Positions 7,118 to 31,054 of a DNA stretch of 44,658 bases are shown here, piece by piece (positions within the stretch are counted from its first letter, which is position 1; each line of letters starts with the position of its first letter). The notes under the pieces are model-generated. The model was given only the letters and a program-made list of their open reading frames with translations. It searched no databases and was not told the origin of the DNA. The translations under genes were made by a program, and so were the position numbers. Source of the DNA: a virus; IMG/VR virus record IMGVR_UViG_3300009436_000037, positions 1-44,658 of that record, one strand, 5' to 3'.

Positions 7118-10100
7118 TTATGACTTTATTTTTACCATAGGCTTAATTCGATAAGAATAACCTAATCTTTTATTATATATCAACCTAAAATTAAGGGGCT
7201 TTTGTTCGTGCGACTTAAATGTAAAATTCGTATCGTTCATATAGCCTCCATCATCTAGATTTTCAACACTCGCAGAAGATATAACCTCAGAATCTACACC
7301 CTTAATTCTACTAGTGTAAATTTTTATCATATCTAAATTAAAAGTGTTTAGCAAGTTGTTTTCTACATAAAGCTGCGCATCATCTTTAGTTGTGGTTTTA
7401 TCACCAGCAGAATTAGCAGCTGAAACGTATTTATTAATAGAGTCTAAAACACCTTCACTACTTAATAGTTTATTAAGAGTACTAGTAATGTAAAAATCCA
7501 TATAAACATATTTCTTATCTTCAAATAAAACTACGTCATATTTTTCGTCGTTATTAGCTAAAATTCTATCTTGTTGCTCCTGCGTACTAGCTCTATATGA
7601 AGTAAAGTTAATCATATTGTATGAATCTTTTACCTTCATGATTGTAGAACCTAAATAAGATCTTTCTTCTTTAGTTTCAAATGTACCGGGTACCGCTTCG
7701 TTTGTTCCACCGGATAAAGATCTAGTATAATAGTTTTTATCCCAAGAAGATCTAAATACATTTACATCTTTTTTGTCTATTGCAATCTCACCTATTAACG
7801 GGTAAAGAGGTAACTTATCTGTAGATCTTGATAATTTAGTAACACCTGCAGAATTAGTCTCATTTACTTTTCTATAAAAGTGGTTTTTAATTATACCCCA
7901 AGAAGAATCATGAGTTCCACCATCTTGTATAAAACCTAAATTAAATGAAGTTCCACATCTGTTATATCGTTTGTAATAATCTCTAGCTAATTTAATTTCT
8001 TCAGCACTAGTTAAAGAGTGCTTATACATTGGCTCCTCAAAGTTTAACTCAGTTTCGTTTAACGTAGTTTGAAGTGTATTTGTTTTAAAATGAGAATACG
8101 TATCTGTAAATGTTACAACAGGTCTAGTATCTACCGTGTAGCTACCGTTGTGTCTAACTAAGAACGGATAGTAAGTATCGCCTTGTTCAATATCAAACCC
8201 AATAACACCTTGTTTTAATTTAAAAGTTTTAGGCTTATCTTGATCTGGTGCTATAGTTAAATTAGAATCTTTAATTATCTCTACTCCATTTTCAAAATCT
8301 AATTCAAATTGATTATTTAATATAGTACCATCTTCTTCAATAGTAGTATATACAACACTACCATCGTTTAGTAATAATAAATCAGCAACTGATCCAACAG
8401 ACAGTTGGTCTAAGATCGACGTAAACGCATTCTTACCCCCTTGTTTATATACATACTCTGCACTATTTTGAACATAACCAGATATGTTAGAAACATTAAC
8501 AGCATTACCGTTTAAGTCTTGAGGGGCTCCTTCTAGAGTTATTTGATTTTGATCGTCTACTGATTGTATTTTTAGTATAAAAGTAACAGGTCCAGTAGAG
8601 TCCGTAACTGTAATTTCAATATTACCAAATATGTCATCATCATCTGAACTAATTTGATCTAAAAAGCTAGCAGTAGATCCGTCAGCGTGATTAATACCAG
8701 TTGCTACTAGATAATCAGCACCGTTTGGATTCGTAAAGTTAATATCGTTTAAGTTAAGGGCTCCTGATAATGCAACATCAGAATAGCCAAAGTTTTGATT
8801 TTCATGATTCCAAACAAAACTATGATTCATTTCATATAGAAGTTTTCTATTTAAAGCACCATCAATCCATAAATCATCTAATGATACTGTAATTAAAAAG
8901 ACAACAAACTTAAATGCTTTATTTTGAATTACCTCATATTGTATTCCGTTATTATCACTACCACCTCTTACTAATACTAAAGTGCTAAACTTATAGCCAT
9001 TAAAATCAGAAGTTTTAACAAACTCACTAGCTTTAGTGTTTACAAATTCTTTTCTATTTTTAAAGTCTACTCTAATACCTTTAAAAACTGTATTAGCAAA
9101 TGAAGCGTCATTACCACCAGAGACTAAAGTATATTTCTTTTGTAGATTTGTTTTAATAAACGACTTTATGTCATATTGATCTTTTACTTCAAACCCATCA
9201 GTAACCATAAACTTATCAAAGTAATTATATGACGTACTTTTAAAGTGAGAAGGTTTTATCTTAAAATCATTTAAGAAATTAACATAACTAAATGTGCTGT
9301 TAAGTTGGTTATAGTCTAAATACTTTGGAAGGTTATCCATATAAAACCATTCATGAGTCATTCCCAGTCTATCTCTACCAACAGAATTAAAGTCCGGTGA
9401 GAAGTTAGTTCTACCAAAAGCCTCGTTAGCATTTAGATAATAAGGTTGCTCTCTTACAGTTAAACTATCTTTTAGTGTCCATTTATTTATATTAGGAACT
9501 ACTCTAGATTGTATTGCAAATTCTTTTAAATTATTCTCTTGTAACCTATCATATTCAGTAAACAATTTAATCTCATCATTCTCGGCTTCAGTTTCCTCTC
9601 CTAAACGATCGTTAATTCCACTAAAATAAGTATATGGATCTGATATATCGTAATCATTACTAAACACCTCGAGTGTATTTTGTTGACTTCTTTCAGGCTC
9701 ATAGTTAATAATTGCTGGAGTTTCATACTCTAATTCCTTTAGCTCAGAGTTTTCTATATCATAGAAATCAAAGTTCATATCATGAATATCATAGGCTGAG
9801 AATAATCCAAGTCTAGCTATATTTTCAGAGTATAATTTTTGTTCGCCACTTTCAATGTAATTCTTTTTATCTAGTATTAGTTTCTGGTAAATAGTATTAG
9901 GTGTTGTAATATCATCGACTATGTCAATAATCTCATTGTAAACACCAACCGAAGGTGTTGGTAACATATTACCGACAGCAACATCTGAAACAGAATCTTT
10001 AGTTACTAAAACAGATTTACCAGCAGAATTACCACCATTCATGTAATGTACAAAGTTATTGTCAATTATATTTTCTGAAAGTTTAAGTAAACCACTAGGG

Positions 10101-13100
10101 TTATTTACTGTTTTTAAGTCTCTGTTGTTTAATGTAATAAAAGTATTGGCATTATTAGCAGGTATTAAAATACCGGACTGTAAAAGTCTATAACCACTTA
10201 CCGCATTCTTAATATAGAAATCAGACGCACCGTCATTTATTATTGCAGTAAAGTTGATACTACTATTGTTAACACATCCTACAATCGCTTTAGCGATCTC
10301 AGAGGTCGTGCCTTCTAGGGAATAAAAATTACCATTGTATGAACCAGGCGCTAGTGAGTGTGTTGCAAAGAACGTAGAGCTATCTAAATTAATAGAAGTC
10401 TGCATCTGTGTAACCTTAGCAATACTACTAATATTTACTCCGTTTCCTGTAAACGAAAGTTGTAAATCTTGTAAAGAAGCGTTAACCTCATTAATAAAAA
10501 TAGTATTAGGATATTTACTGTTTGGACCGCCATAAGTAATAGCTATATTGTCTTTGTACGCATTAAGTGCGTTTTTAATTGCTGCGTAAGCATCCCCAAC
10601 ATTATTACCAATGTTAATAACAGGAATATTAATTACAGCACCGTCAATATTAATAGACATGTTCCAGGATTCATTTGGTATATGTCTTAAAAACTTAATT
10701 GAATATACTGATTCTCTAGACTCAAATACTGTAAACCTATCATTTACCGCAGGTGTTCCCGTGACAGTGAACTTAACAAAATCAAATCCTGGTAAATCAC
10801 TTTTAATAATATCAATAGAATTACCATTAGGAGCTGTTTTAATCTCGGCAGGTATTTGATTGTTACTATCTTCTACAATTACATTTAGATTATTAGTGTC
10901 ATACTGGGCTCTTGACGATACTTTATAGAACTCGTCGCTTATATTAAGATATGCCAATGTAGGAGTTGTTGATACTTGTTTAAACGATGGTATTGCAGAT
11001 TTTGGAAGATCGTTAATATGTGAGTTTAAACTTTTAAAAATAACATCTCCATTATTTGCAGAACGTATACTACCATATCCTGAATCAATATCATTTACAT
11101 ACAGCCCAAAATATCTATTAATAGAATAGTCTTTAGCGTTATGGTCATCAAATAAAAACTCTATATTGATTAAGTTAGCACATGCAAGTTTATTTCTTTC
11201 AAAACCGTCTGTAATCATTTCATTACTAGCAATAAGAGGGCTATCAGCTCTAACAAAGTCTTTATGTAAATATTCACCCTTGCTAGTAAATCCACCCTTT
11301 CCTAAATCAATACCATTAAAGCTACTTTTCTCTCTCTTTTCAAAGTTAAACTGTATTGGTGATTTAGGGAACGACTCAGCATTAACATGGTTTCTAATAT
11401 ATTTACCAATTGCTGAATCTGTAGTTAAATCAAAGGTCTTAATAATTTCAGAGTTCTTTAGAAGATCCTGTATATTGTCAAAGTTAGTTCTTGTATCAAA
11501 GTCCATTTCTCCAACAGGGTCGTTAACTCTAAATATAACAAACTTTTTAGGAATATCTTTATCTAACCAAATAGGTGCTAACATTCTTAACTCTTCAGTA
11601 TGAAGTTTAGAATAGTTATATGTTGTTCCGTAATGATAAACCTCTTCAATTTGTTTATCAAAACTATCTTGTACTGTAAAATCTGAGTAATCAGCCCTTG
11701 TCGCGTACATTATATCAGAAGGAGTGGAACTACTCTTGTAAAACTTGTATAAGTCTTGAGACCACTGTCCCTCTGGGTTAAGCGCCCATTTCTTATACTC
11801 AACTGAAGCTAACTCTTTAGTCGCATCAATAGATTCAAGAAAAATCTGATCAGTACTATTTGCTACTAATTTAGCATTAGTTGTTAATTTAGGGTTTGTT
11901 CTTAATAGGGGTTTAGATACATTATCTAATACGTAGTTTTCTTCTAAATTAAAATTAGGAGATGTTCTATTTAATACCTCAGCATTATCCATTGCTGGAA
12001 ATGCATACGTAGCCCAGTTGTGATTAGTTCCTTGAGTTCCTGATGCACATGAGTAGCATATTGTACCCTCTTCTCCTTGTGTAAAGTTTCTCCAAACAAC
12101 AGATGCTTGGCTACCTAATCCAAAATCAACCGCATTAATAGAAATTGCCTTGGCATCCATATCTCCGGATCCTGCAATTATATCGATTTCATTTTGCATT
12201 AAATCTACAGCCTCTTCAATATTTGTTGCAGCTATATAATTTATATAAGTGAAACATTTACCATCTATTTTAACCTGAGCTCTAACGTTTTTATCACCAA
12301 CGTTAATAGTCCTCATAAAATCGTTAACATAAGATACTCCACTTTCGCTAAACTGTTCAATATCTACCATACCATCTACCACATAAACAGGGTAATATGG
12401 TTGACCTCCAGGTATACCTGGATCTAATTGAGGCTCACATGCGTAAAATGCAAAGAATATAGAATTTTTAGAACCCAGATGGTTACCTACTTGTATCGTG
12501 TCAATTACACCCAAGTTATCGTCAAAATCAACTTGTTGAGTTATACTCCAAAGGGCATCTCTTTGATAATCTGCTAAAGGACCTGCAATACCATCGCTAC
12601 ATGTTCCTAATTGTGAACTAGTAGCAGCCTGTTCTAATACATTATTAGTATCGAATGCAAACCAGTTATATGTACCATCATACCCAGTATAATCATCATT
12701 ATCCCATAATACAAAGCCACCGCTAGTAGCATCTAGTAAAACTGAACTAGGCTGTAATAATGAATAATTTTGACTTTCTGCCCCACTAGCAGTTACAAAA
12801 ATTTGAATCTTAGAACCACTATTAATGGTTGTTTTAGCAACGTCTAATAGGCTTGGGTTTTGATTAGCATTAGCAGCATCCCATCTAAAATAAATTGTAA
12901 CTAAATCAAAACGTTCATCATCGACATCAGCCCACGGTAAACCTCCTATAGCATTACATACTGCACCTATATTAGTAGGATCAGCACTATAATATCTAAC
13001 ATCTAGTGATTTTGTTATGTATGTTATTGGTGTCGGACATGTAATAAGATAGACTCCAGGTGCGTTTGTTGGATCTGGTTCTAACCAATCTGCAATTGCA

Positions 13101-15343
13101 GTATCCCAGTAAAAATATTGATTAGATGTAATACTAGAATCTCCGTATGCACCTTGTGCTAATATGACGCTTGCTGGAGCAGTTTGGCCCGCATATTGGT
13201 TTGCCCAATATTCCGATGCAAACAATTGACCGCCTGCTGCCACAACATCAGTTAAAGTTACAGTACCTCCGGATTGCTGCGGATCTAAAATATTTTGCCA
13301 AACATTACCTGTTTGATATATTCCGTTACAATAATCAGCAGCCTGTGCGTTATATGTAACATTAAGTATTTCCCATGCAGCACCACCGGCGGTTGTACAA
13401 TTTAATATACTTTCTATTGCCCCGGTTGTTGCATTTAATTGAAGTGCTTTTACAGTTCCCTGTGATGTTTCTTCTACAGAAACCCACGTGCTACTAGCAC
13501 TTGTAGGAATTACCCTACTTGTAGGCTGTAAGTCATCATCGACATAAATAAAGTCTCCTACTGCTAAAGTAGATAAGAACGTTGTACCGTTAGGCGCTGT
13601 TTCGTAATAGTATTGATCTAGCCCAGTGCTTCTAGCTTGTGCACATGCTGACTGATCAGAGTTTGTAAATGCAGAATATTGAATCCCTCTATATGGCACC
13701 TCTGTTATAGTAAACTGATAAGTAAGAGTAGAAACTGTAATTCCGTCGCTAACTTCTAAAGTTACTGTGGCATTCCCTGCAGTTACTCCATTAACTGAAA
13801 ACGTCTGAGTACTCGCGTTATATGTCGCTGTAACAGTTCCAGTATTATTGTTATTAGGGTCATCATCAACCGTATAATTTAAACCTTGACCTGGATCAAC
13901 ATCTGTAGCAGTTAAGCCAGTAACAGTAAATGGAGAGCCGGCTACAATGGCAATTGAATTGCCTGGAGCGTTATATGCTTGCCCATTCTGTTTCCATACA
14001 GGGGCCGTATTACTAGTTGAAGTATTATTAACAGTTACTTGAATCGGAGCAGAATCGTCAGTACCATCATTTGCTTTATAGTAAAAAACATCTGTTAGTG
14101 TAGATGGGTTAGAACCTGGAGCAATGTATAATTGAGTATTTTGTGTATACTGAAAAGTTTGACCGGAACCTACTTGAGTTAAAGCCCCATGGTTTAACGA
14201 GGGAAGACCGGTTGTTACACCTGATGCATTACACCAATTAAAAGTCATACTCTGGTTCTCAGGGTCGGTCGCAACTCTAGTAAAAGTATCGGAATTAGTA
14301 GTACCGTCGGCTACTAAGCTTATGGTTATTGGATTACCAGTTGGAGGTTGATTAGCAGGTGCATTAACGTTTATTGTAATTGTACCAGTATTTGATACAT
14401 TGCCGTTATCGTCTTCTGCTTTAAATGTAAAATTAACTACACTGCCTGCAACTGTATTACCAGGGTGGTATTTAACTATGTAGTTATTTCCATCACCATC
14501 TATTTGTAGTTCATAAACCAATTGCCCTGGAGCAATTGGAGTAGCAGGAGCATAATTATCTCTTAGCGTACCTGTTGTCGGTAAAGTAATAATTTTCCAT
14601 ATTAATGGGTCACTCTCTGTGTCATTAGTAAGCTGTTGAAGATCTATTGTTACACTATCAGCAGCGTCATTATTTTGAGTTACATTAAATGTTTGGTTAG
14701 TTACAGTAGGAGCGGTGTTAGGGTTTTCTGATGTATCATTTATAGTAACATCGTGTGTAAGTGTGCCTGTTGTAATACTATTATCATCGAGTGCATCTAA
14801 TGTTAAAGTTAATGTCTCAGCACCTTCTGTAGTAGTATCTTCAGCTAGAGTAAATGTAACAGAACCAGAGTCACTCGTAATGGTTATAGTACCTGTTAGC
14901 GAACCTACTGTAAAATCATTACCATCAATGTTAGTACCCGATAAAGTATAACCTACTTCTGTACCATTTGGAATATTAGTAGTAGCTACCGTAAATATAA
15001 TAGAACCACCCTCATCGACATTTGATACGTTTGAACTTAAAGTATCATAAGACACGGGAGTAATAGTATCAACCTGTCCTATATCAGTGACACCATCTAA
15101 TTGTATTGCACTTTGGTTTGTTTCATCCCAGTGCCACCCATTACTGCCAGGTGCATATACTGTACCTGTTGATGGGTTAGTATCACTTGTATCATAAAGT
15201 ATATTACCTACCTCTAATACACCAGCATTCGCATTACTGGAATCATCAAAGTATTTTGTACTATTGTTTACGCTACTAGGACCATTCTGAATCGCTAGGA
15301 TTGCAGATGTTTCTAAATTACCTTTAAGTATTAATTGTGCCAT
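7118..15343 (-). CDS. Giant (2741 aa) fibre or adhesin-like virion protein
   Basis: The largest gene in the window. Residues ~105-205 resemble a Calx-beta-type domain (VDEGGSIIFTV, then TTEGAETLTLTLDAL). Residues ~210-560 hold about three cadherin-like or Ig-like repeats (NTAPTVTNQTFNV; YYKANDGTDDSAPIQV; VTLEVSDGITVS), as in bacterial adhesins. Residues ~560-950 contain several longer Cys-bounded repeats with Tyr/Trp-rich strands (SACAQARSTGLDQYYY is the first), a pattern I associate with receptor-binding regions of Bacteroidota phages. The rest is a long structural body without recognised domains. No signal peptide is present, as expected for a virion protein. It is preceded by a promoter-like motif and a hairpin, and followed after 3 nt by the collagen-like fibre. 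It probably forms a long tail fibre or peripheral baseplate appendage. Confidence 0.75.
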   Translation of the reverse strand: MAQLILKGNLETSAILAIQNGPSSVNNSTKYFDDSSNANAGVLEVGNILYDTSDTNPSTGTVYAPGSNGWHWDETNQSAIQLDGVTDIGQVDTITPVSYDTLSSNVSNVDEGGSIIFTVATTNIPNGTEVGYTLSGTNIDGNDFTVGSLTGTITITSDSGSVTFTLAEDTTTEGAETLTLTLDALDDNSITTGTLTHDVTINDTSENPNTAPTVTNQTFNVTQNNDAADSVTIDLQQLTNDTESDPLIWKIITLPTTGTLRDNYAPATPIAPGQLVYELQIDGDGNNYIVKYHPGNTVAGSVVNFTFKAEDDNGNVSNTGTITINVNAPANQPPTGNPITISLVADGTTNSDTFTRVATDPENQSMTFNWCNASGVTTGLPSLNHGALTQVGSGQTFQYTQNTQLYIAPGSNPSTLTDVFYYKANDGTDDSAPIQVTVNNTSTSNTAPVWKQNGQAYNAPGNSIAIVAGSPFTVTGLTATDVDPGQGLNYTVDDDPNNNNTGTVTATYNASTQTFSVNGVTAGNATVTLEVSDGITVSTLTYQFTITEVPYRGIQYSAFTNSDQSACAQARSTGLDQYYYETAPNGTTFLSTLAVGDFIYVDDDLQPTSRVIPTSASSTWVSVEETSQGTVKALQLNATTGAIESILNCTTAGGAAWEILNVTYNAQAADYCNGIYQTGNVWQNILDPQQSGGTVTLTDVVAAGGQLFASEYWANQYAGQTAPASVILAQGAYGDSSITSNQYFYWDTAIADWLEPDPTNAPGVYLITCPTPITYITKSLDVRYYSADPTNIGAVCNAIGGLPWADVDDERFDLVTIYFRWDAANANQNPSLLDVAKTTINSGSKIQIFVTASGAESQNYSLLQPSSVLLDATSGGFVLWDNDDYTGYDGTYNWFAFDTNNVLEQAATSSQLGTCSDGIAGPLADYQRDALWSITQQVDFDDNLGVIDTIQVGNHLGSKNSIFFAFYACEPQLDPGIPGGQPYYPVYVVDGMVDIEQFSESGVSYVNDFMRTINVGDKNVRAQVKIDGKCFTYINYIAATNIEEAVDLMQNEIDIIAGSGDMDAKAISINAVDFGLGSQASVVWRNFTQGEEGTICYSCASGTQGTNHNWATYAFPAMDNAEVLNRTSPNFNLEENYVLDNVSKPLLRTNPKLTTNAKLVANSTDQIFLESIDATKELASVEYKKWALNPEGQWSQDLYKFYKSSSTPSDIMYATRADYSDFTVQDSFDKQIEEVYHYGTTYNYSKLHTEELRMLAPIWLDKDIPKKFVIFRVNDPVGEMDFDTRTNFDNIQDLLKNSEIIKTFDLTTDSAIGKYIRNHVNAESFPKSPIQFNFEKREKSSFNGIDLGKGGFTSKGEYLHKDFVRADSPLIASNEMITDGFERNKLACANLINIEFLFDDHNAKDYSINRYFGLYVNDIDSGYGSIRSANNGDVIFKSLNSHINDLPKSAIPSFKQVSTTPTLAYLNISDEFYKVSSRAQYDTNNLNVIVEDSNNQIPAEIKTAPNGNSIDIIKSDLPGFDFVKFTVTGTPAVNDRFTVFESRESVYSIKFLRHIPNESWNMSINIDGAVINIPVINIGNNVGDAYAAIKNALNAYKDNIAITYGGPNSKYPNTIFINEVNASLQDLQLSFTGNGVNISSIAKVTQMQTSINLDSSTFFATHSLAPGSYNGNFYSLEGTTSEIAKAIVGCVNNSSINFTAIINDGASDFYIKNAVSGYRLLQSGILIPANNANTFITLNNRDLKTVNNPSGLLKLSENIIDNNFVHYMNGGNSAGKSVLVTKDSVSDVAVGNMLPTPSVGVYNEIIDIVDDITTPNTIYQKLILDKKNYIESGEQKLYSENIARLGLFSAYDIHDMNFDFYDIENSELKELEYETPAIINYEPERSQQNTLEVFSNDYDISDPYTYFSGINDRLGEETEAENDEIKLFTEYDRLQENNLKEFAIQSRVVPNINKWTLKDSLTVREQPYYLNANEAFGRTNFSPDFNSVGRDRLGMTHEWFYMDNLPKYLDYNQLNSTFSYVNFLNDFKIKPSHFKSTSYNYFDKFMVTDGFEVKDQYDIKSFIKTNLQKKYTLVSGGNDASFANTVFKGIRVDFKNRKEFVNTKASEFVKTSDFNGYKFSTLVLVRGGSDNNGIQYEVIQNKAFKFVVFLITVSLDDLWIDGALNRKLLYEMNHSFVWNHENQNFGYSDVALSGALNLNDINFTNPNGADYLVATGINHADGSTASFLDQISSDDDDIFGNIEITVTDSTGPVTFILKIQSVDDQNQITLEGAPQDLNGNAVNVSNISGYVQNSAEYVYKQGGKNAFTSILDQLSVGSVADLLLLNDGSVVYTTIEEDGTILNNQFELDFENGVEIIKDSNLTIAPDQDKPKTFKLKQGVIGFDIEQGDTYYPFLVRHNGSYTVDTRPVVTFTDTYSHFKTNTLQTTLNETELNFEEPMYKHSLTSAEEIKLARDYYKRYNRCGTSFNLGFIQDGGTHDSSWGIIKNHFYRKVNETNSAGVTKLSRSTDKLPLYPLIGEIAIDKKDVNVFRSSWDKNYYTRSLSGGTNEAVPGTFETKEERSYLGSTIMKVKDSYNMINFTSYRASTQEQQDRILANNDEKYDVVLFEDKKYVYMDFYITSTLNKLLSSEGVLDSINKYVSAANSAGDKTTTKDDAQLYVENNLLNTFNLDMIKIYTSRIKGVDSEVISSASVENLDDGGYMNDTNFTFKSHEQKPLNFRLIYNKRLGYSYRIKPMVKIKS
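7171..7181 (-). promoter_or_regulatory. GATATATAATA motif, candidate late promoter for the collagen-like fibre gene
   Basis: Minus-strand TTGATATATAATA is almost identical to the site at 15380-15390, but lies within the last codons of the 2741-aa gene. It ends ~57 nt before the ATG at 7114. An internal promoter would allow separate expression of the downstream fibre, NTase-like and spanin-like genes. The underlying codons (LIYN) could also produce it by chance. Confidence 0.4.
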
Positions 15344-24426: not shown

Positions 24427-24699
24427 TTATCTAATATACTTATCATCTTTTTTAACCGTATAATTCTTGTAACCTTTTAGAAATCTATTACCGTTTAATA
24501 TATTTAAAAGATAATCATTTAAGAAAGAAATAAAATCGTTAAGTGTTGTATTTCTTTGAATGTGCTTAGAAATCATTCTTTGGAATAAACCAATCTCTTG
24601 ATAATCCGCACCGACATTTAGCCTAGAATCTTTTCTAGTTCTGGCCGCCTTGTAAAGGCTATTTCTTTTATATGCTAATAGATCTTTATATAATGACAT
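24427..24699 (-). CDS. Small basic protein between gp6-like and gp7-like genes
   Basis: A 90-aa basic, mostly helical protein (MSLYKDLLAYKRNSLYKAAR; later FISFLNDYLLNILNGNRFL). I recognise no family. Its ATG overlaps the stop of the gp6-like gene as TAATG, and it ends 2 nt before the gp7-like start. It is thus translationally coupled within the wedge operon, and its product probably acts in baseplate wedge assembly as a small component or chaperone. That role is inferred from position only. Confidence 0.65.
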   Translation of the reverse strand: MSLYKDLLAYKRNSLYKAARTRKDSRLNVGADYQEIGLFQRMISKHIQRNTTLNDFISFLNDYLLNILNGNRFLKGYKNYTVKKDDKYIR

Positions 24700-26528
24700 T
24701 ATTTCAAGGCTTTTCTGTTTCCAGCCTGTACTCTAGTGTATATCGTCCTAGGCACTGGCGTTGGGTCGAAGTTAACAGACAGAGCTGCTTCTGCATTAAT
24801 TAGAGCTTTATCAACAATCTCGTCACCATCACGATCTTGCCATCCGCCTCTAAAGACTGCAACTTCCTCTTTCTCCATAATTATATCACCCCACTGGTCT
24901 AAGCCAGCAACAGTGTACGGTATTACTGTAGTTTCATCAACGTCAACGACCCTGACTTCTTCTACTTTTTTGAAAAAGATATATTTTTGCTTACCGTTAC
25001 CTATGTCTTCTAAGACTACTGGCTCTTGTGGTTGAACGGTTGTTGTAACCGACTCGAAGTAACCTAGTCTTCTAGCTGTTTCTTCAGTTTCTGAAATAAA
25101 CCTAACGTTAACAGCATCAATACCTTCTATTTCCTCTAGAATATAGACAATATCAGATTTAGGCAGCTTATCTCTTCTTGTTACATTTAACATGTAATCA
25201 CTTACCTTTGCTCTGACATCATTAAAAATCTCTTCTTTGTTAAACCCTGAAAAATATCTAATATTAATATCCATACTATATTTTCTAACCTGAGGTTTTA
25301 CAAATACAACTTCAGTCGTAACCATTTGCTGGCCACTATCCTGAATTACTTGTCCCATTTTATCATATTCATTTTGGTCAAAGAACATTTCATTCTCTGG
25401 GATAGAGAAGTAATCTTGACCTGAAATTAATTTCTTTTTTACATCCGGAATCGCAAAAATATAGATAACGTTATCATCATCTAAGTATTCATCCGAAGTA
25501 GTATTGTAAGCATCTATGTACGAGAATAATCCATATCTTGATAAGAAGTATTCGTAATTATCTGGAGTCGCTAAAACAAAAGATTTTGAAGCAAGAGGTG
25601 TCATGATTTTTGTAAAGTCAGTAGACTCTCTTTCTGCTCCCATTTTTGGAGATGAAGTACATGTAATATCTAAGAACTCATTTAGGTCATGTTCGCCTCC
25701 TAAAGAATCAGTTCCCTCTGCATCCCATTTAAAAGTAATATCTCTACCATCATCAATGTTACCCATTGCACCATCATGGTTTACATATTCTACTTCAATA
25801 GTAGATCCTAGCGGCGGTATTGCACCAAATGCATCATTACCAAAATAAACATCAATACCTCCGGAGATACCTGTTTTTAATAAATAACCTTTTTCTTTAT
25901 TTAATAAGTCATATAATGAAACATGTTTAGTCCATTTTTCACCGTTTACAGAAACACTAACTTTAGAGTGATCTGATAATTTCTTTGTTTGTACATTAAA
26001 AGATTGTAGCTTTTCACCAGTACCAGTTAATGTTTGTCTTTCATATTTACCTTGAATAATACCACACTTAACCATGTTCATAGAAGATTTTTCTAATCGG
26101 TATCTATCGTTTGAAGATAATAAAGTATAAGTTAAATTATTTAATTCACATTTTAACTCAGCTCTTGCATCTATATTTAATCCAGTACCTGCAATCTTAC
26201 CTAGGTCAGCTCCTGGCTTCCATCTAAATTGAATCTCACCAGTTGAAGCAAAACCTCTTGTTGCATCGTGGCCTGTTAGCCTCGACATACCATATATAGA
26301 TTCTGCTTGTTGCGCAGTATATATGTTTTGTTCAACCACAGCATCCTCAATATAAAACATGATAAGTTCATATAGCTCTGAGAATACAGAAATAATTTGA
26401 GCAAAAGGAGAAGCTTCTGTAAAAAGAGTATTAGCCCTTTTGTAAACTCTACTTATGTAGGTTCTTGTATCAGCTTTAATTGCTGCTGCGTTATTTCTAA
26501 CTGTCTCTAAAAATTTTAGTTGTGCCAT
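24699..26528 (-). CDS. Baseplate wedge protein, gp6-like (baseplate J family)
   Basis: This 609-aa protein matches T4 gp6 (660 aa) in size and organisation. It has a helical N-terminus with SPFAQIISVFSELYELIMFY, a middle beta region, and a C-terminal section typical of J-like wedge proteins. There a VRKYSMDINIRYFSGFN strand precedes FNDVRAKVSDYMLNVTRRDK, then IVYILEEIEGIDAVNVRF. gp6 forms the inner ring of the contractile baseplate with gp7 and gp53. The gene sits directly after gp25-like, a pairing conserved across contractile tails. A beta domain of ~80 residues follows the J-like part at the C-terminus (PQEPVVLEDIGNGKQKYIFF onward). Confidence 0.8.
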   Translation of the reverse strand: MAQLKFLETVRNNAAAIKADTRTYISRVYKRANTLFTEASPFAQIISVFSELYELIMFYIEDAVVEQNIYTAQQAESIYGMSRLTGHDATRGFASTGEIQFRWKPGADLGKIAGTGLNIDARAELKCELNNLTYTLLSSNDRYRLEKSSMNMVKCGIIQGKYERQTLTGTGEKLQSFNVQTKKLSDHSKVSVSVNGEKWTKHVSLYDLLNKEKGYLLKTGISGGIDVYFGNDAFGAIPPLGSTIEVEYVNHDGAMGNIDDGRDITFKWDAEGTDSLGGEHDLNEFLDITCTSSPKMGAERESTDFTKIMTPLASKSFVLATPDNYEYFLSRYGLFSYIDAYNTTSDEYLDDDNVIYIFAIPDVKKKLISGQDYFSIPENEMFFDQNEYDKMGQVIQDSGQQMVTTEVVFVKPQVRKYSMDINIRYFSGFNKEEIFNDVRAKVSDYMLNVTRRDKLPKSDIVYILEEIEGIDAVNVRFISETEETARRLGYFESVTTTVQPQEPVVLEDIGNGKQKYIFFKKVEEVRVVDVDETTVIPYTVAGLDQWGDIIMEKEEVAVFRGGWQDRDGDEIVDKALINAEAALSVNFDPTPVPRTIYTRVQAGNRKALK

Positions 26529-26921: not shown

Positions 26922-27764
26922 TTATGAGTGGAACATATAGTCCACACCTTCGTCGCCCTTAATTTCCTCTACTATCGACTCTAACTCGGTGTCTCCCATG
27001 TCTTTAATAGCATCATAATCAAATTCTACATTACCTGGTAATGCAAACTTAAATATACCTAATTTAGCACCTAAAGATTGCTTTATCTTTGCAGAGCAAT
27101 ATCTAAAGAAAATCTCATCTGAATAAAGTGCACAATCAGATATAGTTTCGTATACCTGTAGTATACAATCTCCTTTCGGAGTGTCTCCCATTATTTTCAG
27201 CTTACCATTTAGTCTAGCATACTGAAAGCTAATAGGGTTTTCTAAAATCTGTCTTGACATATCTGCCAATGACGCATTTAGTACATAATATTGTAATTCT
27301 TCGGCTGCTTCTGCTGGACCAGATCCATCATACATACCTCTAAATAACATTTTGTCTAGCGAAAAATCACCACCACCTTGAAATCTAACATCCATACCTT
27401 GACCTGTTCCATTAAAGCCAGAAGCTAAATCATGTACTCCAAAAACTGAATAGACTGCGCCTCCACCATCAGCGTTAGCTCCCGGTAGGTTTAAACATCT
27501 ATGCTTTTTAAAATAATCGGATTCAAAAACATTTTTAGGAACAACATAATAGTTTTCTAATACAGAATCTTCATATTGCTTATAGAACCATTTTTTAGCT
27601 CTCTTAATAATGTTCATGATTTCTCTTTGCGGTAAATTAACTGGAACCATACAAGCACCTGTTAAATCATCCCCAAGCTCTGCTAAAAACTCATTTTGGC
27701 AGTTTTGCCCAAAATCTCTTTCAGTGCCTAAGTTAGTATTGTTACCTTCTCTAATTTCGCTCAT
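26922..27764 (-). CDS. Neck or head-tail connector-type virion protein, candidate
   Basis: A 280-aa protein. It has an N-terminal FLAELGDD and VNLPQREIMNIIKRAKKWFY helix, typical of connector or neck proteins that begin with a short helical bundle. A beta region with glycine-rich insertions follows, then IFFRYCSAKIKQSLGAKLG with LPGNVEFDYDAIKDMGDTEL near the C-terminus. The last part resembles T4-type neck-associated proteins as I recall them, but I cannot assign gp13 or gp14. It follows the amidoligase-like gene by 2 nt and precedes gp25-like by 20 nt. Confidence 0.5.
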   Translation of the reverse strand: MSEIREGNNTNLGTERDFGQNCQNEFLAELGDDLTGACMVPVNLPQREIMNIIKRAKKWFYKQYEDSVLENYYVVPKNVFESDYFKKHRCLNLPGANADGGGAVYSVFGVHDLASGFNGTGQGMDVRFQGGGDFSLDKMLFRGMYDGSGPAEAAEELQYYVLNASLADMSRQILENPISFQYARLNGKLKIMGDTPKGDCILQVYETISDCALYSDEIFFRYCSAKIKQSLGAKLGIFKFALPGNVEFDYDAIKDMGDTELESIVEEIKGDEGVDYMFHS

Positions 27765-27766
27765 TC

Positions 27767-29080
27767 TTACGCTTTAATTTTTTTACTTACAATAACTTCA
27801 GTCTCATCAGAGAATCTAACATGAGGCCCGACCCCACCTTCTCTGAAAATACCTCCATTCATTTTGCCTTTAAATATACCGTCCCTGCCAAAAACAAAAC
27901 AGTTGTTCAAAGTACAACTCCCATGTACAAAACTAGACTCTACTTTAGAGTCCCAAACCTCTGTACCTTGGTATAGATTTGATCTTAATATTTGAGCACC
28001 TTTGATTTTACATCCGTATAAATCACAGTTTTCAATATTACCCGATAATTCACAGTCTACAAATTCAAAACCATCTAATAAATATGAAGTTTTAAACTTA
28101 CCATCCTTAACCTGAACCCCTGAAAAATCAGAATCATAGTTAATTGTGCCCTCTTCCATTCCTCCGTTTGACAATAGATCTAGTACTTTTAACTTAAATC
28201 TTTCCCATTGAACTCTAATAACCTGCGGATTATCTTGCAAATCTACTAGTATATGTATCTTAGGCCAATGTTTATTTACGGCGGTATAGTCTTTTAATAC
28301 TGCTGAAAGCGGTGCATTTTTCTGCAAAATCCTTTTCATCTCGATTTTATTCTCGGCAGTAAACTTAGGATTAAAGCAAGATTTCCATACAGACATAATA
28401 AACATTTCCGCTAAATGTAAAATATCATCACCTCTTTTTTCATAATCTTTACCACCAATATATCTAAACTCTAAATAGTTCTTTTGTGCTTTCTCAAAGT
28501 TAATACCATAATATTTAGTATTGGCAAACGTAAAGTTATCTGAGCTAATTAGATTTTCATTGTAATAAAAGGCTTCATTTTTAGGCATAACCCATTTAAT
28601 AGACTTTGCATAAGTTGAATTCTCTCTATTAGGGAAATATTTGTAAACCCTTTTCTCATCAAATTCTAAAATAAACTTTAAAATATTCATTTTAGATACC
28701 ATCATAGGATCTATTAAAAAATCAGGATTGAAAGACATATTAAGGTGAATAGAAGCACGGTCAGTTGTATAACCATTTGCTTTAATCCATCCTAACATTT
28801 TAATAATAACTAATCTAGCATCTCGATATGGCATAGGTCCAGTAACTAATTCAATTAGTCCTTTACCACCAGACATATCTGGTTCCATTTTAAAAACATC
28901 TTTGCTAGGTTGAAAGTCAGAATGGGCCTTATCTTCTACTTTAATCTTGCGATTAAGTAGCTTAGATAAAGCTTTCTGTGTCTCTTCGATCTCTAAGTTA
29001 GAATAGAATTCAAACTCGATACCCATTTGACTTCCGTTCAGTATCGAAATTCTACTAGAGTCTCTATTTAGTTTTTGCAT
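27767..29080 (-). CDS. Amidoligase-like enzyme fused to beta-helix-like C-terminus
   Basis: Residues ~15-235 show the pattern of amidoligase (COOH-NH2 ligase, glutamine-synthetase-like fold) proteins. They read MGIEFEFY (Glu22, Glu24), FKMEPDMSGG (Glu66, Asp68), IELVTGPMPY (Glu77), ASIHLNMSF (His112, Asn114) and NYLEFRYIGG (Glu204, Arg206). Such enzymes form ATP-dependent amide or peptide bonds, so an amino-acid tag on a protein or modification of a small molecule is expected. Residues ~310-410 are short repeating strands (CELSGNIENCDLYGCKIKG; SSFVHGSCTLNNCFVFG) like pentapeptide-repeat or left-handed beta-helix folds, perhaps substrate binding. It has a promoter-like motif upstream and is followed by a neck-like gene 2 nt later, so it is made with virion proteins. 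The substrate is unknown. Confidence 0.65.
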   Translation of the reverse strand: MQKLNRDSSRISILNGSQMGIEFEFYSNLEIEETQKALSKLLNRKIKVEDKAHSDFQPSKDVFKMEPDMSGGKGLIELVTGPMPYRDARLVIIKMLGWIKANGYTTDRASIHLNMSFNPDFLIDPMMVSKMNILKFILEFDEKRVYKYFPNRENSTYAKSIKWVMPKNEAFYYNENLISSDNFTFANTKYYGINFEKAQKNYLEFRYIGGKDYEKRGDDILHLAEMFIMSVWKSCFNPKFTAENKIEMKRILQKNAPLSAVLKDYTAVNKHWPKIHILVDLQDNPQVIRVQWERFKLKVLDLLSNGGMEEGTINYDSDFSGVQVKDGKFKTSYLLDGFEFVDCELSGNIENCDLYGCKIKGAQILRSNLYQGTEVWDSKVESSFVHGSCTLNNCFVFGRDGIFKGKMNGGIFREGGVGPHVRFSDETEVIVSKKIKA

Positions 29081-29130: not shown

Positions 29131-30423
29131 TTATTGGGGCATCTTTAAAAAGACCTTCATTGTTGCCTCGTCAATTCTAGTAATCTGAACGGTTATTTTA
29201 TCACCAGGGTTAAATACAGACATAGTCTCCTCACCTATTTCGCTAACATGTAGCAATCCAGTCACACCCTCTTCGATTGTAATGAATAAACCATAATCTT
29301 TTTTAGACTTTACAGTTGCCTCTACCACAGAAGGTATTTGGTATCTCGTAGAAATATTTATCCAAGGGTTAACCTCGACTACATCTTTCTGTGTTAGGGT
29401 AATCTTCCTATTACTAATAATATCTTTTACCTTAAATTTAATTGGATCTCCAGGTTTAATATCTCTAGCTTTAAATCTAGTTAAAGTTTCTTCGTCTAGG
29501 TCATTATTGTGAATCATACCAGTTAAACATTTGCTAAACTCTACGAATACACCATACTTAGCTGTACCTGTTACTAGCCCTTCTCTTTCTATCTCAATGC
29601 TCTGTTTTAATTCTTCTATTGCAGTTGGTATAAGTGCTTGTAAATATTTTCTATGTGAAACTACAATCGTACCTCTATCTGGAGAGAAACTAACCGGTAC
29701 TACATAAATCTCTTCGCCAACAATAGAGCTGAAATCAGATAATTTATTTATACCTGCTAATGAACCTGGCATAAAGCAACTAATACCTTGTACTGTAACT
29801 ACATAACCACCTTTATCAATCATACTATTAACAGTACCAATCCATGCAGTTCTACCTTCATCAATTGCATCTCTAAGATCCATGAATGTTTTATGTTTGA
29901 CACCACCTGTAATCGTACCTGTAATCGTACCTTTTGTTTCTGTAATTAAGACTGCGGTTTCATCTCCAACAGAAGATGCTTGAACCTCAGCAGACTCTTT
30001 ACCAAACTTAACATAGACTAATTCTCTATAATTTATATCTACAGTTATATAGTCTCGATCAATCGCGTGAATAGTACCCTCGTGGATTTCACCCTCATTA
30101 ACAACCGGCTTAATATCTTTGCCGTAATTTTCCATCATATCATATAACTCTTGTGCATAGGGCTCTCTCGAGTATACCTTATCACCGTCATTAGTTTTAA
30201 TATGCGGATTAGGAGTTCTATTTCTAGTAGGACACGTACCTTCGTAAGCTTCCCAAAGGAACTCTCCGTTTTCATCATAAAATTCTGCGTGGGGGTTTGC
30301 AGGTTTTTCTTTAGCTTCTGTTTTAGCTTCTACCTGCTCTTGTGTATTTTGAGTCTTTTCTTCGACTGCGATTGTTGTGGTTACATCTTGACCGATGCGT
30401 TTTCTTTTAGCGTTTGCTGACAT
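29131..30423 (-). CDS. Ribosomal protein S1-like RNA-binding protein with four S1 domains
   Basis: A 430-aa protein. Residues ~10-45 are a Lys/Glu/Gln-rich linker. Residues ~46-105 form a unique segment (TCPTRNRTPNPHI). Four S1 (OB-fold) domains follow at about 111-165, 193-258, 282-346 and 363-428. The last two are classic (GTAKYGVFVEF then LTGMIHNNDL; KSKKDYGLFITIEEGVTGLL then HVSEIG). Bacterial S1 usually has six domains and brings mRNA to the 30S subunit. Domains one and two are more divergent. It begins its own unit at the divergent region and precedes the amidoligase and wedge genes, so abundant late expression is plausible. It may help translate SD-less phage mRNA, or bind RNA for another purpose. 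Confidence 0.8.
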   Translation of the reverse strand: MSANAKRKRIGQDVTTTIAVEEKTQNTQEQVEAKTEAKEKPANPHAEFYDENGEFLWEAYEGTCPTRNRTPNPHIKTNDGDKVYSREPYAQELYDMMENYGKDIKPVVNEGEIHEGTIHAIDRDYITVDINYRELVYVKFGKESAEVQASSVGDETAVLITETKGTITGTITGGVKHKTFMDLRDAIDEGRTAWIGTVNSMIDKGGYVVTVQGISCFMPGSLAGINKLSDFSSIVGEEIYVVPVSFSPDRGTIVVSHRKYLQALIPTAIEELKQSIEIEREGLVTGTAKYGVFVEFSKCLTGMIHNNDLDEETLTRFKARDIKPGDPIKFKVKDIISNRKITLTQKDVVEVNPWINISTRYQIPSVVEATVKSKKDYGLFITIEEGVTGLLHVSEIGEETMSVFNPGDKITVQITRIDEATMKVFLKMPQ

Positions 30424-30462
30424 TTATTTTTTATTTAAAAGGTTATACTATCTTAGTAACAT

Positions 30463-30472
30463 ATTATATATC
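30463..30472 (-). promoter_or_regulatory. GATATATAAT motif, candidate late promoter for the S1-like gene
   Basis: Minus-strand GTAGATATATAATATG ends ~39 nt before the S1-like ATG at 30423. This is the least ambiguous site in the set because no gene lies immediately upstream on the same strand. Some promoter is therefore needed here. Confidence 0.55.
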
Positions 30473-30655: not shown

Positions 30656-31054
30656 ATGAGTAAATTTAATGTAAACGAAGTAACTTGCAACGGAGTAGGC
30701 GGTCATGGTTACCAGGCCGTTCTTAAGCATAAAGATGCAATCTTAGAAATCTGTCAAGATGTCAGAGATCTTATCGGTATTGAAAAACTATGGGAACTAG
30801 CAACTGCAGATCCTAATGTTGATTATCACCAAGGTACTAGGTTTAATTCTGTAGAGGATAATGCTTATAGACTTATCTCTGGAATTGCAAATCATGTATC
30901 TGAGTATTTGCCAAACAGCTTGCTAGTCGAGATGCACGTAGGAGCCATCCTACCGATGTTAACTATGGAAGAAAAGGTAATACTTGTTACTGATGCTTGT
31001 AGGGACTGTGCGTCTGCAGACCATTGGTATACATACGAAAAGGATTGGGGTTAA
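30656..31054 (+). CDS. Lone plus-strand gene, unrecognised 132-aa protein
   Basis: The only gene on this strand. The protein is soluble, helical and slightly acidic. It has a Cys near the N-terminus (NEVTCNGVGGHGYQAVL), several His residues (GGHGYQ, DYHQG, IANHVSEYL, EMHVG, DHWYTY) and a Cys pair near the end (TDACRDCASADHW). The His/Cys content could bind a metal, but there is no recognised motif. Its orientation and TATAAT-like upstream box suggest independent, perhaps early, expression. Its TAA shares four bases with the stop of the convergent 653-aa gene (TTAA at 31051-31054), leaving no room for a terminator between them. Function unknown. Confidence 0.75.
   Translation: MSKFNVNEVTCNGVGGHGYQAVLKHKDAILEICQDVRDLIGIEKLWELATADPNVDYHQGTRFNSVEDNAYRLISGIANHVSEYLPNSLLVEMHVGAILPMLTMEEKVILVTDACRDCASADHWYTYEKDWG

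What the first reader, a model, noticed from the sequence alone, without database searches (positions are those of the whole stretch)
29131..30423. Phage-encoded four-domain S1 protein in a genome with almost no Shine-Dalgarno sites
Starts across the window have A-rich leaders without GGAGG. A phage S1 could tether ribosomes to such mRNA, or outcompete host S1 to redirect translation. It opens its own transcription unit directly ahead of structural genes. The non-S1 segment 46-105 with TCPTRNRTPNPHI may give a partner-binding function.
Basis: partly seen in the sequence, partly recalled or inferred. Interest (0 to 1): 0.75.

Follow-up and report, generated by a model that had tools for sequence, protein, structure and literature searches.

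The report
Huge-phage version of ribosomal protein S1
A marine phage related to huge phages of Bacteroidota-type bacteria carries a shortened copy of ribosomal protein S1 that keeps the parts used to dock on the ribosome; phage S1 genes of this kind, and their link to missing Shine-Dalgarno sites, are already in the literature, and the missing sites turn out to be shared by related phages that have no S1.

Summary
The ORF is real but lies on the minus strand (29131-30423, 430 aa). It is a genuine bS1-type protein: its domains 1 and 2 match bacterial bS1 D1 and D2 specifically, followed by two RNA-binding domains of D4/D5 type. Residues that anchor E. coli bS1 on uS2 have invariant counterparts (Y89/Y94 helix, R133), which suggests ribosome docking. 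118 IMG/VR stretches encode relatives, and homologues sit in 462-735 kb metagenomic phages and Lak phages; all these phage S1s form one clade (100/100), so this is an old phage gene, not a recent host acquisition. Some of the same phages carry bS21, the ribosomal neighbour of bS1. The lack of Shine-Dalgarno sites is confirmed, but four related jumbo phages with no S1 domain lack them equally and share the same A-rich -14 to -11 leader. New here: residue-level docking evidence, the S1-less control, and a 16-nt leader element (GATATATAWTATGTTA) found once per contig, only ahead of S1. Verdict: new member of a known kind; function inferred, not shown.

The parts
29131..30423 (-). phage bS1-like gene, 430 aa
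   Evidence: ORF; bS1 homology
30457..30472 (-). 16-nt leader element GATATATAATATGTTA, beginning 49 nt before the S1 start codon; promoter or regulatory site, function not shown
   Evidence: 15 of 16 positions invariant in 19 relatives in an otherwise divergent leader; exactly one copy in each of 11 large contigs; in 74 of 81 loci, always ahead of S1
30241..30267 (-). GEFLWEAYE motif (residues 53-61), resembling the (D/N)F(D/N)WxxFExG motif near the N terminus of Bacteroidota bS1
   Evidence: F55 and W57 invariant in 22 phage sequences; F.W invariant in 5 Bacteroidota bS1
30109..30288 (-). N-terminal extension, residues 46-105, with a low-confidence stretch (60-85) and a helix (88-100)
   Evidence: alignment and model; pN/pS 0.30
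30124..30162 (-). helix 88-100 (YAQELYD), likely counterpart of the uS2-binding helix of bS1
   Evidence: Y89, A90, Q91, Y94 invariant; E. coli Phe5/Gln7/Phe9 bind uS2 (PMC10123108)
29908..30108 (-). domain 1 (residues 106-172), bS1 D1 type; R133 at the place of E. coli Lys43
   Evidence: D1 HMM 15.1 bits against 6.2 for the next; alignment
29638..29862 (-). domain 2 (residues 188-262), bS1 D2 type, most constrained domain
   Evidence: D2 HMM 41.6 bits against 7.5 for the next; pN/pS 0.17
29380..29601 (-). domain 3 (residues 275-348), RNA-binding type S1 domain, D4/D5-like
   Evidence: Pfam S1
29140..29358 (-). domain 4 (residues 356-428), RNA-binding type S1 domain, D4/D5-like
   Evidence: Pfam S1
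27767..29080 (-). 437-aa gene directly downstream, unknown function, next to S1 throughout the marine clade
26922..27764 (-). head-tail adaptor Ad2-like gene
   Evidence: PHROG 211
24699..26528 (-). baseplate wedge subunit
   Evidence: PHROG 219; relatives in Bacteroidota-type jumbo and huge phages
30656..31054 (+). 132-aa ORF of unknown function on the other strand, found near S1 in about a third of the loci

Best explanation
The gene encodes a phage-owned, shortened bS1. During infection it most likely docks on the host 30S subunit through its N-terminal helix and domain 1 (on uS2, at the mRNA exit), places domain 2 at the exit channel, and uses domains 3 and 4 to hold A/U-rich phage leaders. 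It would supplement or replace the loosely bound host bS1 when late proteins are made, in some phages together with a phage bS21 that occupies the neighbouring site. Shown: homology, domain order, conserved anchor residues, purifying selection, shared phage ancestry, co-occurrence with bS21 in some phages. Inferred: docking, mRNA binding, timing, and any preference for phage mRNA. It is not needed for SD-less translation as such, since related phages without it have the same leaders.
For: Domain-specific match to bS1 D1 and D2; best fold matches are bS1 on the 30S subunit (9gut_B, E 1.5e-24); counterparts of the uS2 anchor (Y89, Q91, Y94, R133) and of two of three OB2 pocket residues (Y207, F217) are invariant; strong constraint on D2; phage S1s form one clade at 100/100; bS21 in 6 of 17 records searched, two of them of the marine clade; bS21 bridges bS1 OB1 to 16S rRNA in E. 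coli (PMC10123108); added bS1 raised initiation on an SD-less mRNA in F. johnsoniae in vitro (PMC9976891).
Against: No biochemical data. Overall identity to bacterial bS1 is only about 25-30%. NCBIfam rpsA models match well below their cut-offs (160 of 524 bits). Lak-C1's version lacks domain 4. Relatives without S1 manage the same mRNA type. Structure model confidence is moderate (pLDDT 66, pTM 0.40).
Confidence: 0.6

Rival explanations
1. It works off the ribosome as an RNA chaperone or mRNA protector, or as a partner of phage RNA enzymes, using its S1 domains without stable docking.
For: S1 domains are widespread in such proteins; in Lak and other huge phages the gene lies near Thg1-like, RNase H-like or AAA genes, not baseplate genes; host S1 serves the RegB nuclease in T4 (PMC13157829).
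Against: An off-ribosome binder would not need specific D1 and D2 domains or the conserved uS2-type anchor.
Confidence: 0.22
2. It is a decoy that displaces host bS1 and lowers host translation, without serving phage mRNA.
For: It keeps the docking half and has a shortened RNA-binding arm; by analogy, a Pelagibacter phage bS21 lowered translation by E. coli ribosomes in vitro (PMC6375957).
Against: Domains 3 and 4 remain constrained (pN/pS 0.24 and 0.25); the gene heads a run of structural genes.
Confidence: 0.1
3. It is a virion or injected protein encoded among tail genes.
For: Fixed position ahead of Ad2 and baseplate genes in the marine clade and in LR756500.
Against: In Lak and four other huge phages the gene lies away from the baseplate genes; the architecture is that of ribosomal bS1.
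Confidence: 0.06

Closest known systems
S1 proteins of huge phages (Al-Shayeb et al. 2020, PMC7162821; homologues here in LR756500-LR756504 and LR745206)
   Same: One homologous clade (100/100), S1 tandem domains, SD-poor genomes; that paper already proposed a role in translation initiation from the same correlation.
   Different: The window and its relatives form a separate marine clade, about 31-34% identical to them, with a longer N-terminal extension. That these records are the paper's own genomes is inferred from size and naming.
Lak phage S1-like protein (MK250029)
   Same: Shares the F.W motif and the N(P/K)(H/N)IKT..(D/E)KVFS(R/H)E.YAQELYD segment.
   Different: Lacks domain 4.
Bacteroidota bS1 (rpsA)
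   Same: D1-D2 order, F.W motif near the N terminus, anchor residues.
   Different: Six domains; the phage proteins are not nested within it, though a grouping with it is not rejected (p-AU 0.125).
Phage-encoded bS21 (PMC6375957; PMC9723584)
   Same: Phage copy of a loosely bound protein of the initiation site, Bacteroidota hosts, expressed with late genes, proposed to replace the host copy.
   Different: A different protein; substitution of S1 has not been demonstrated.
Microcystis jumbo phage PhiMa05 bS1 (PMC13157829)
   Same: Phage-encoded bS1.
   Different: Separate bacterial origin according to that paper; here it falls with bacterial bS1 on a very long branch.

Membership tests
bacterial ribosomal protein bS1 | tandem S1 domains with ribosome-docking D1 and D2 followed by RNA-binding S1 domains | tested here: met
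bacterial ribosomal protein bS1 | six domains, as in Bacteroidota | tested here: not met
   four domains, C terminus conserved in 22 relatives; bacterial counts in PMC6705787
bacterial ribosomal protein bS1 | score over the curated rpsA equivalog cut-offs | tested here: not met
   best 160.5 bits against a 524-bit cut-off
bacterial ribosomal protein bS1 | uS2 anchor: aromatic helix and basic residue in loop 2 | tested here: met
   Y89/Y94 and R133 invariant; the aromatic spacing is i,i+5, not i,i+4 as in E. coli
bacterial ribosomal protein bS1 | binds the 30S subunit and mRNA | not testable with these tools
   needs ribosome co-sedimentation and RNA binding assays
huge-phage S1 clade (PMC7162821) | homology and shared ancestry with S1 of the 462-735 kb phages | tested here: met
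huge-phage S1 clade (PMC7162821) | genome with few SD sites | tested here: met
huge-phage S1 clade (PMC7162821) | genome over 200 kb | tested here: inconclusive
   window is a 44.7-kb record; the longest marine relative is 126 kb, also linear

The most novel reading that the evidence does not exclude
These phages rebuild the mRNA-exit platform of Bacteroidota ribosomes by swapping in two neighbouring proteins, bS1 and bS21, and control the dose of the S1 copy through a dedicated leader element (GATATATAWTATGTTA, with a short Met-Leu upstream reading frame) that S1 itself may bind.
Probability: 0.15. Interest if true: 0.75.

Novelty: new member of a known kind. Interest (0 to 1): 0.4.

Why it matters
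The S1-less control phages show that the published correlation between phage S1 and missing SD sites can be explained by the host group. That moves the question from 'how do SD-less phage mRNAs get translated' to 'what does an extra bS1 add', and the conserved anchor residues and the S1-only leader element make this testable in laboratory Flavobacterium.

Tried and rejected
Plus-strand reading of the given coordinates (full of stops). Recent acquisition from a bacterial host: not supported, as phage S1s form their own clade; descent from Bacteroidota bS1 remains open (p-AU 0.125; the F.W motif is suggestive only and was noticed after the fact). The genome-contig scan gave seven distant bacterial bS1 and no Bacteroidota, so Bacteroidota bS1 were taken from plasmid records and one contaminated 'phage' record; the F. 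johnsoniae-like sequence was read from the alignment to PDB chain 9zcd_A, whose organism is my inference. Acinetobacter, Listeria, Enterococcus and several faecal 'phage' hits look like bacterial rpsA contamination and were not counted as phage S1. Whole-profile hhalign placed phage D3-D4 on bacterial D4-D5, which led to the domain-wise test. A recurrent phage promoter was considered for the leader element, but no other copy was found. The hhalign loop printed headers only and was not used; the HMM scores in the same call were.

Full report
Observation. The window is a 44,658-base linear IMG/VR record. The named coordinates hold a 430-aa ATG ORF on the minus strand; the plus strand is full of stops. 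It heads a minus-strand run of tail genes: a 437-aa gene 50 nt downstream, then Ad2-like and baseplate wedge genes.

What the protein is. Pfam finds two S1 domains; E. coli bS1 aligns over residues 108-428 at E 1.9e-40. AlphaFold on 22 phage sequences gives moderate confidence (pLDDT 66) with four beta-rich modules, and the best structure matches are bS1 on the 30S subunit (9gut_B, E 1.5e-24). I scored each phage domain against HMMs of bacterial bS1 D1-D6: phage D1 fits bacterial D1 (15.1 bits, next 6.2), phage D2 fits D2 (41.6, next 7.5), while phage D3 and D4 fit D5 and D4 best and nearly equally. So the protein keeps the docking pair and has two RNA-binding domains in place of four.

Anchor residues. 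In E. coli, bS1 binds uS2 through Phe5, Gln7 and Phe9 of an N-terminal helix and Lys43 of D1, and an OB2 pocket of Lys117, Phe120 and Phe130 meets mRNA (PMC10123108). The phage counterparts Y89, Q91, Y94, R133, Y207 and F217 are invariant in 22 sequences; the Lys117 place varies (K or N). Most other huge phages keep K at the Lys43 place. The spacing of the two aromatics differs by one residue from E. coli, and the assignment rests on alignment. The segment also holds an F.W motif shared with Bacteroidota bS1.

Spread and ancestry. 118 IMG/VR stretches encode relatives. Among phage records, convincing homologues are in LR756500-LR756504, LR745206 and the Lak phages. All those tested form one clade apart from bacterial bS1 at 100/100. 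Other window genes point the same way: the helicase and baseplate wedge match LR756500, Lak, and isolates of Tenacibaculum and Chryseobacterium. Gene order around S1 is kept in the marine clade and LR756500 but not in Lak or four other huge phages. bS21 is present in six of 17 records, two of them marine-clade contigs; most marine contigs are fragments, so absence is not informative.

Shine-Dalgarno test. Core SD motifs precede 3.3% of starts in the window (2.7% in shuffles), 1.2% in the marine clade (1.2%), and 38% in T4 (8%). Four jumbo phages with no S1 domain detected in the whole record show 0-2.1%. A at -14..-11 is enriched over -30..-21 with odds ratios of 2.06, 1.97 and 2.09 in marine S1 phages, huge S1 phages and S1-less phages, matching the F. 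johnsoniae rule (PMC6847099). Bacteroidia ribosomes sequester the anti-SD (PMC9976891). Missing SD sites are thus best read as a host trait. ORFs were called mechanically (first ATG, 100 aa or more), equally in all groups. PAU is deposited under a Sphingomonas host; its genes group with the Bacteroidota-type phages here.

Leader element. GATATATAWTATGTTA begins 34-56 nt before the S1 start (49 in the window). Fifteen of its 16 positions are invariant in 19 relatives in an alignment with 47% mean column identity; it occurs once in each of 11 large contigs and nowhere else in them, and in 74 of 81 loci (two more differ by one base, five are cut short). It contains TATAAT or TATATT and an ATG that begins a 4-12 codon reading frame ending at or before the S1 start. 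Promoter and mRNA operator are both open.

Verdict. A real, constrained, bS1-related phage protein; a new marine branch of a family already reported with the same hypothesis (PMC7162821). Ribosome docking is likely, redirection of translation is unproven, and the SD argument for it fails the control.

Noticed in passing
window 30457-30472 (-), and ahead of S1 in 74 of 81 loci: The ATG inside the 16-nt leader element opens a short Met-Leu reading frame (e.g. MLHL, MLIPFK, MLLR) that in all 74 loci stops at or before the S1 start codon; may be a uORF or a by-product of an A/T-rich promoter.
   Followed up: partly
L114 (LR756501, 735-kb phage), start at 1492: The phage bS21 gene is preceded by AAAGGAGGATAA, a strong Shine-Dalgarno-like leader in a genome otherwise poor in SD, recalling the rpsU autoregulation described for Flavobacteriales; the other phage bS21 leaders examined lack it.
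   Followed up: no
L084 14448-14858 and L086 14085-14474: Small genes just upstream of S1 in two huge phages carry a UvrB/UvrC (UVR) motif.
   Followed up: no
L085 16686-17498 (Lak-C1): A tRNA-His guanylyltransferase (Thg1)-like gene lies close to S1.
   Followed up: no
L010 (IMGVR_UViG_3300046167_000307), 7998-8942: The S1 frame ends after residue 314 in this contig, while tblastn matches the full length; probably a frameshift or assembly error.
   Followed up: no
phages collection: MT835643, CAKLQH020000011, OR845856 and similar: Several records labelled as phage contain bacterial rpsA, in one case in a clear bacterial gene context, so they look like chromosomal contamination.
   Followed up: partly
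window 7118-15343 (-): A 2741-aa gene in the tail region with only a partial match to a PHROG of unknown function (31887).
   Followed up: no
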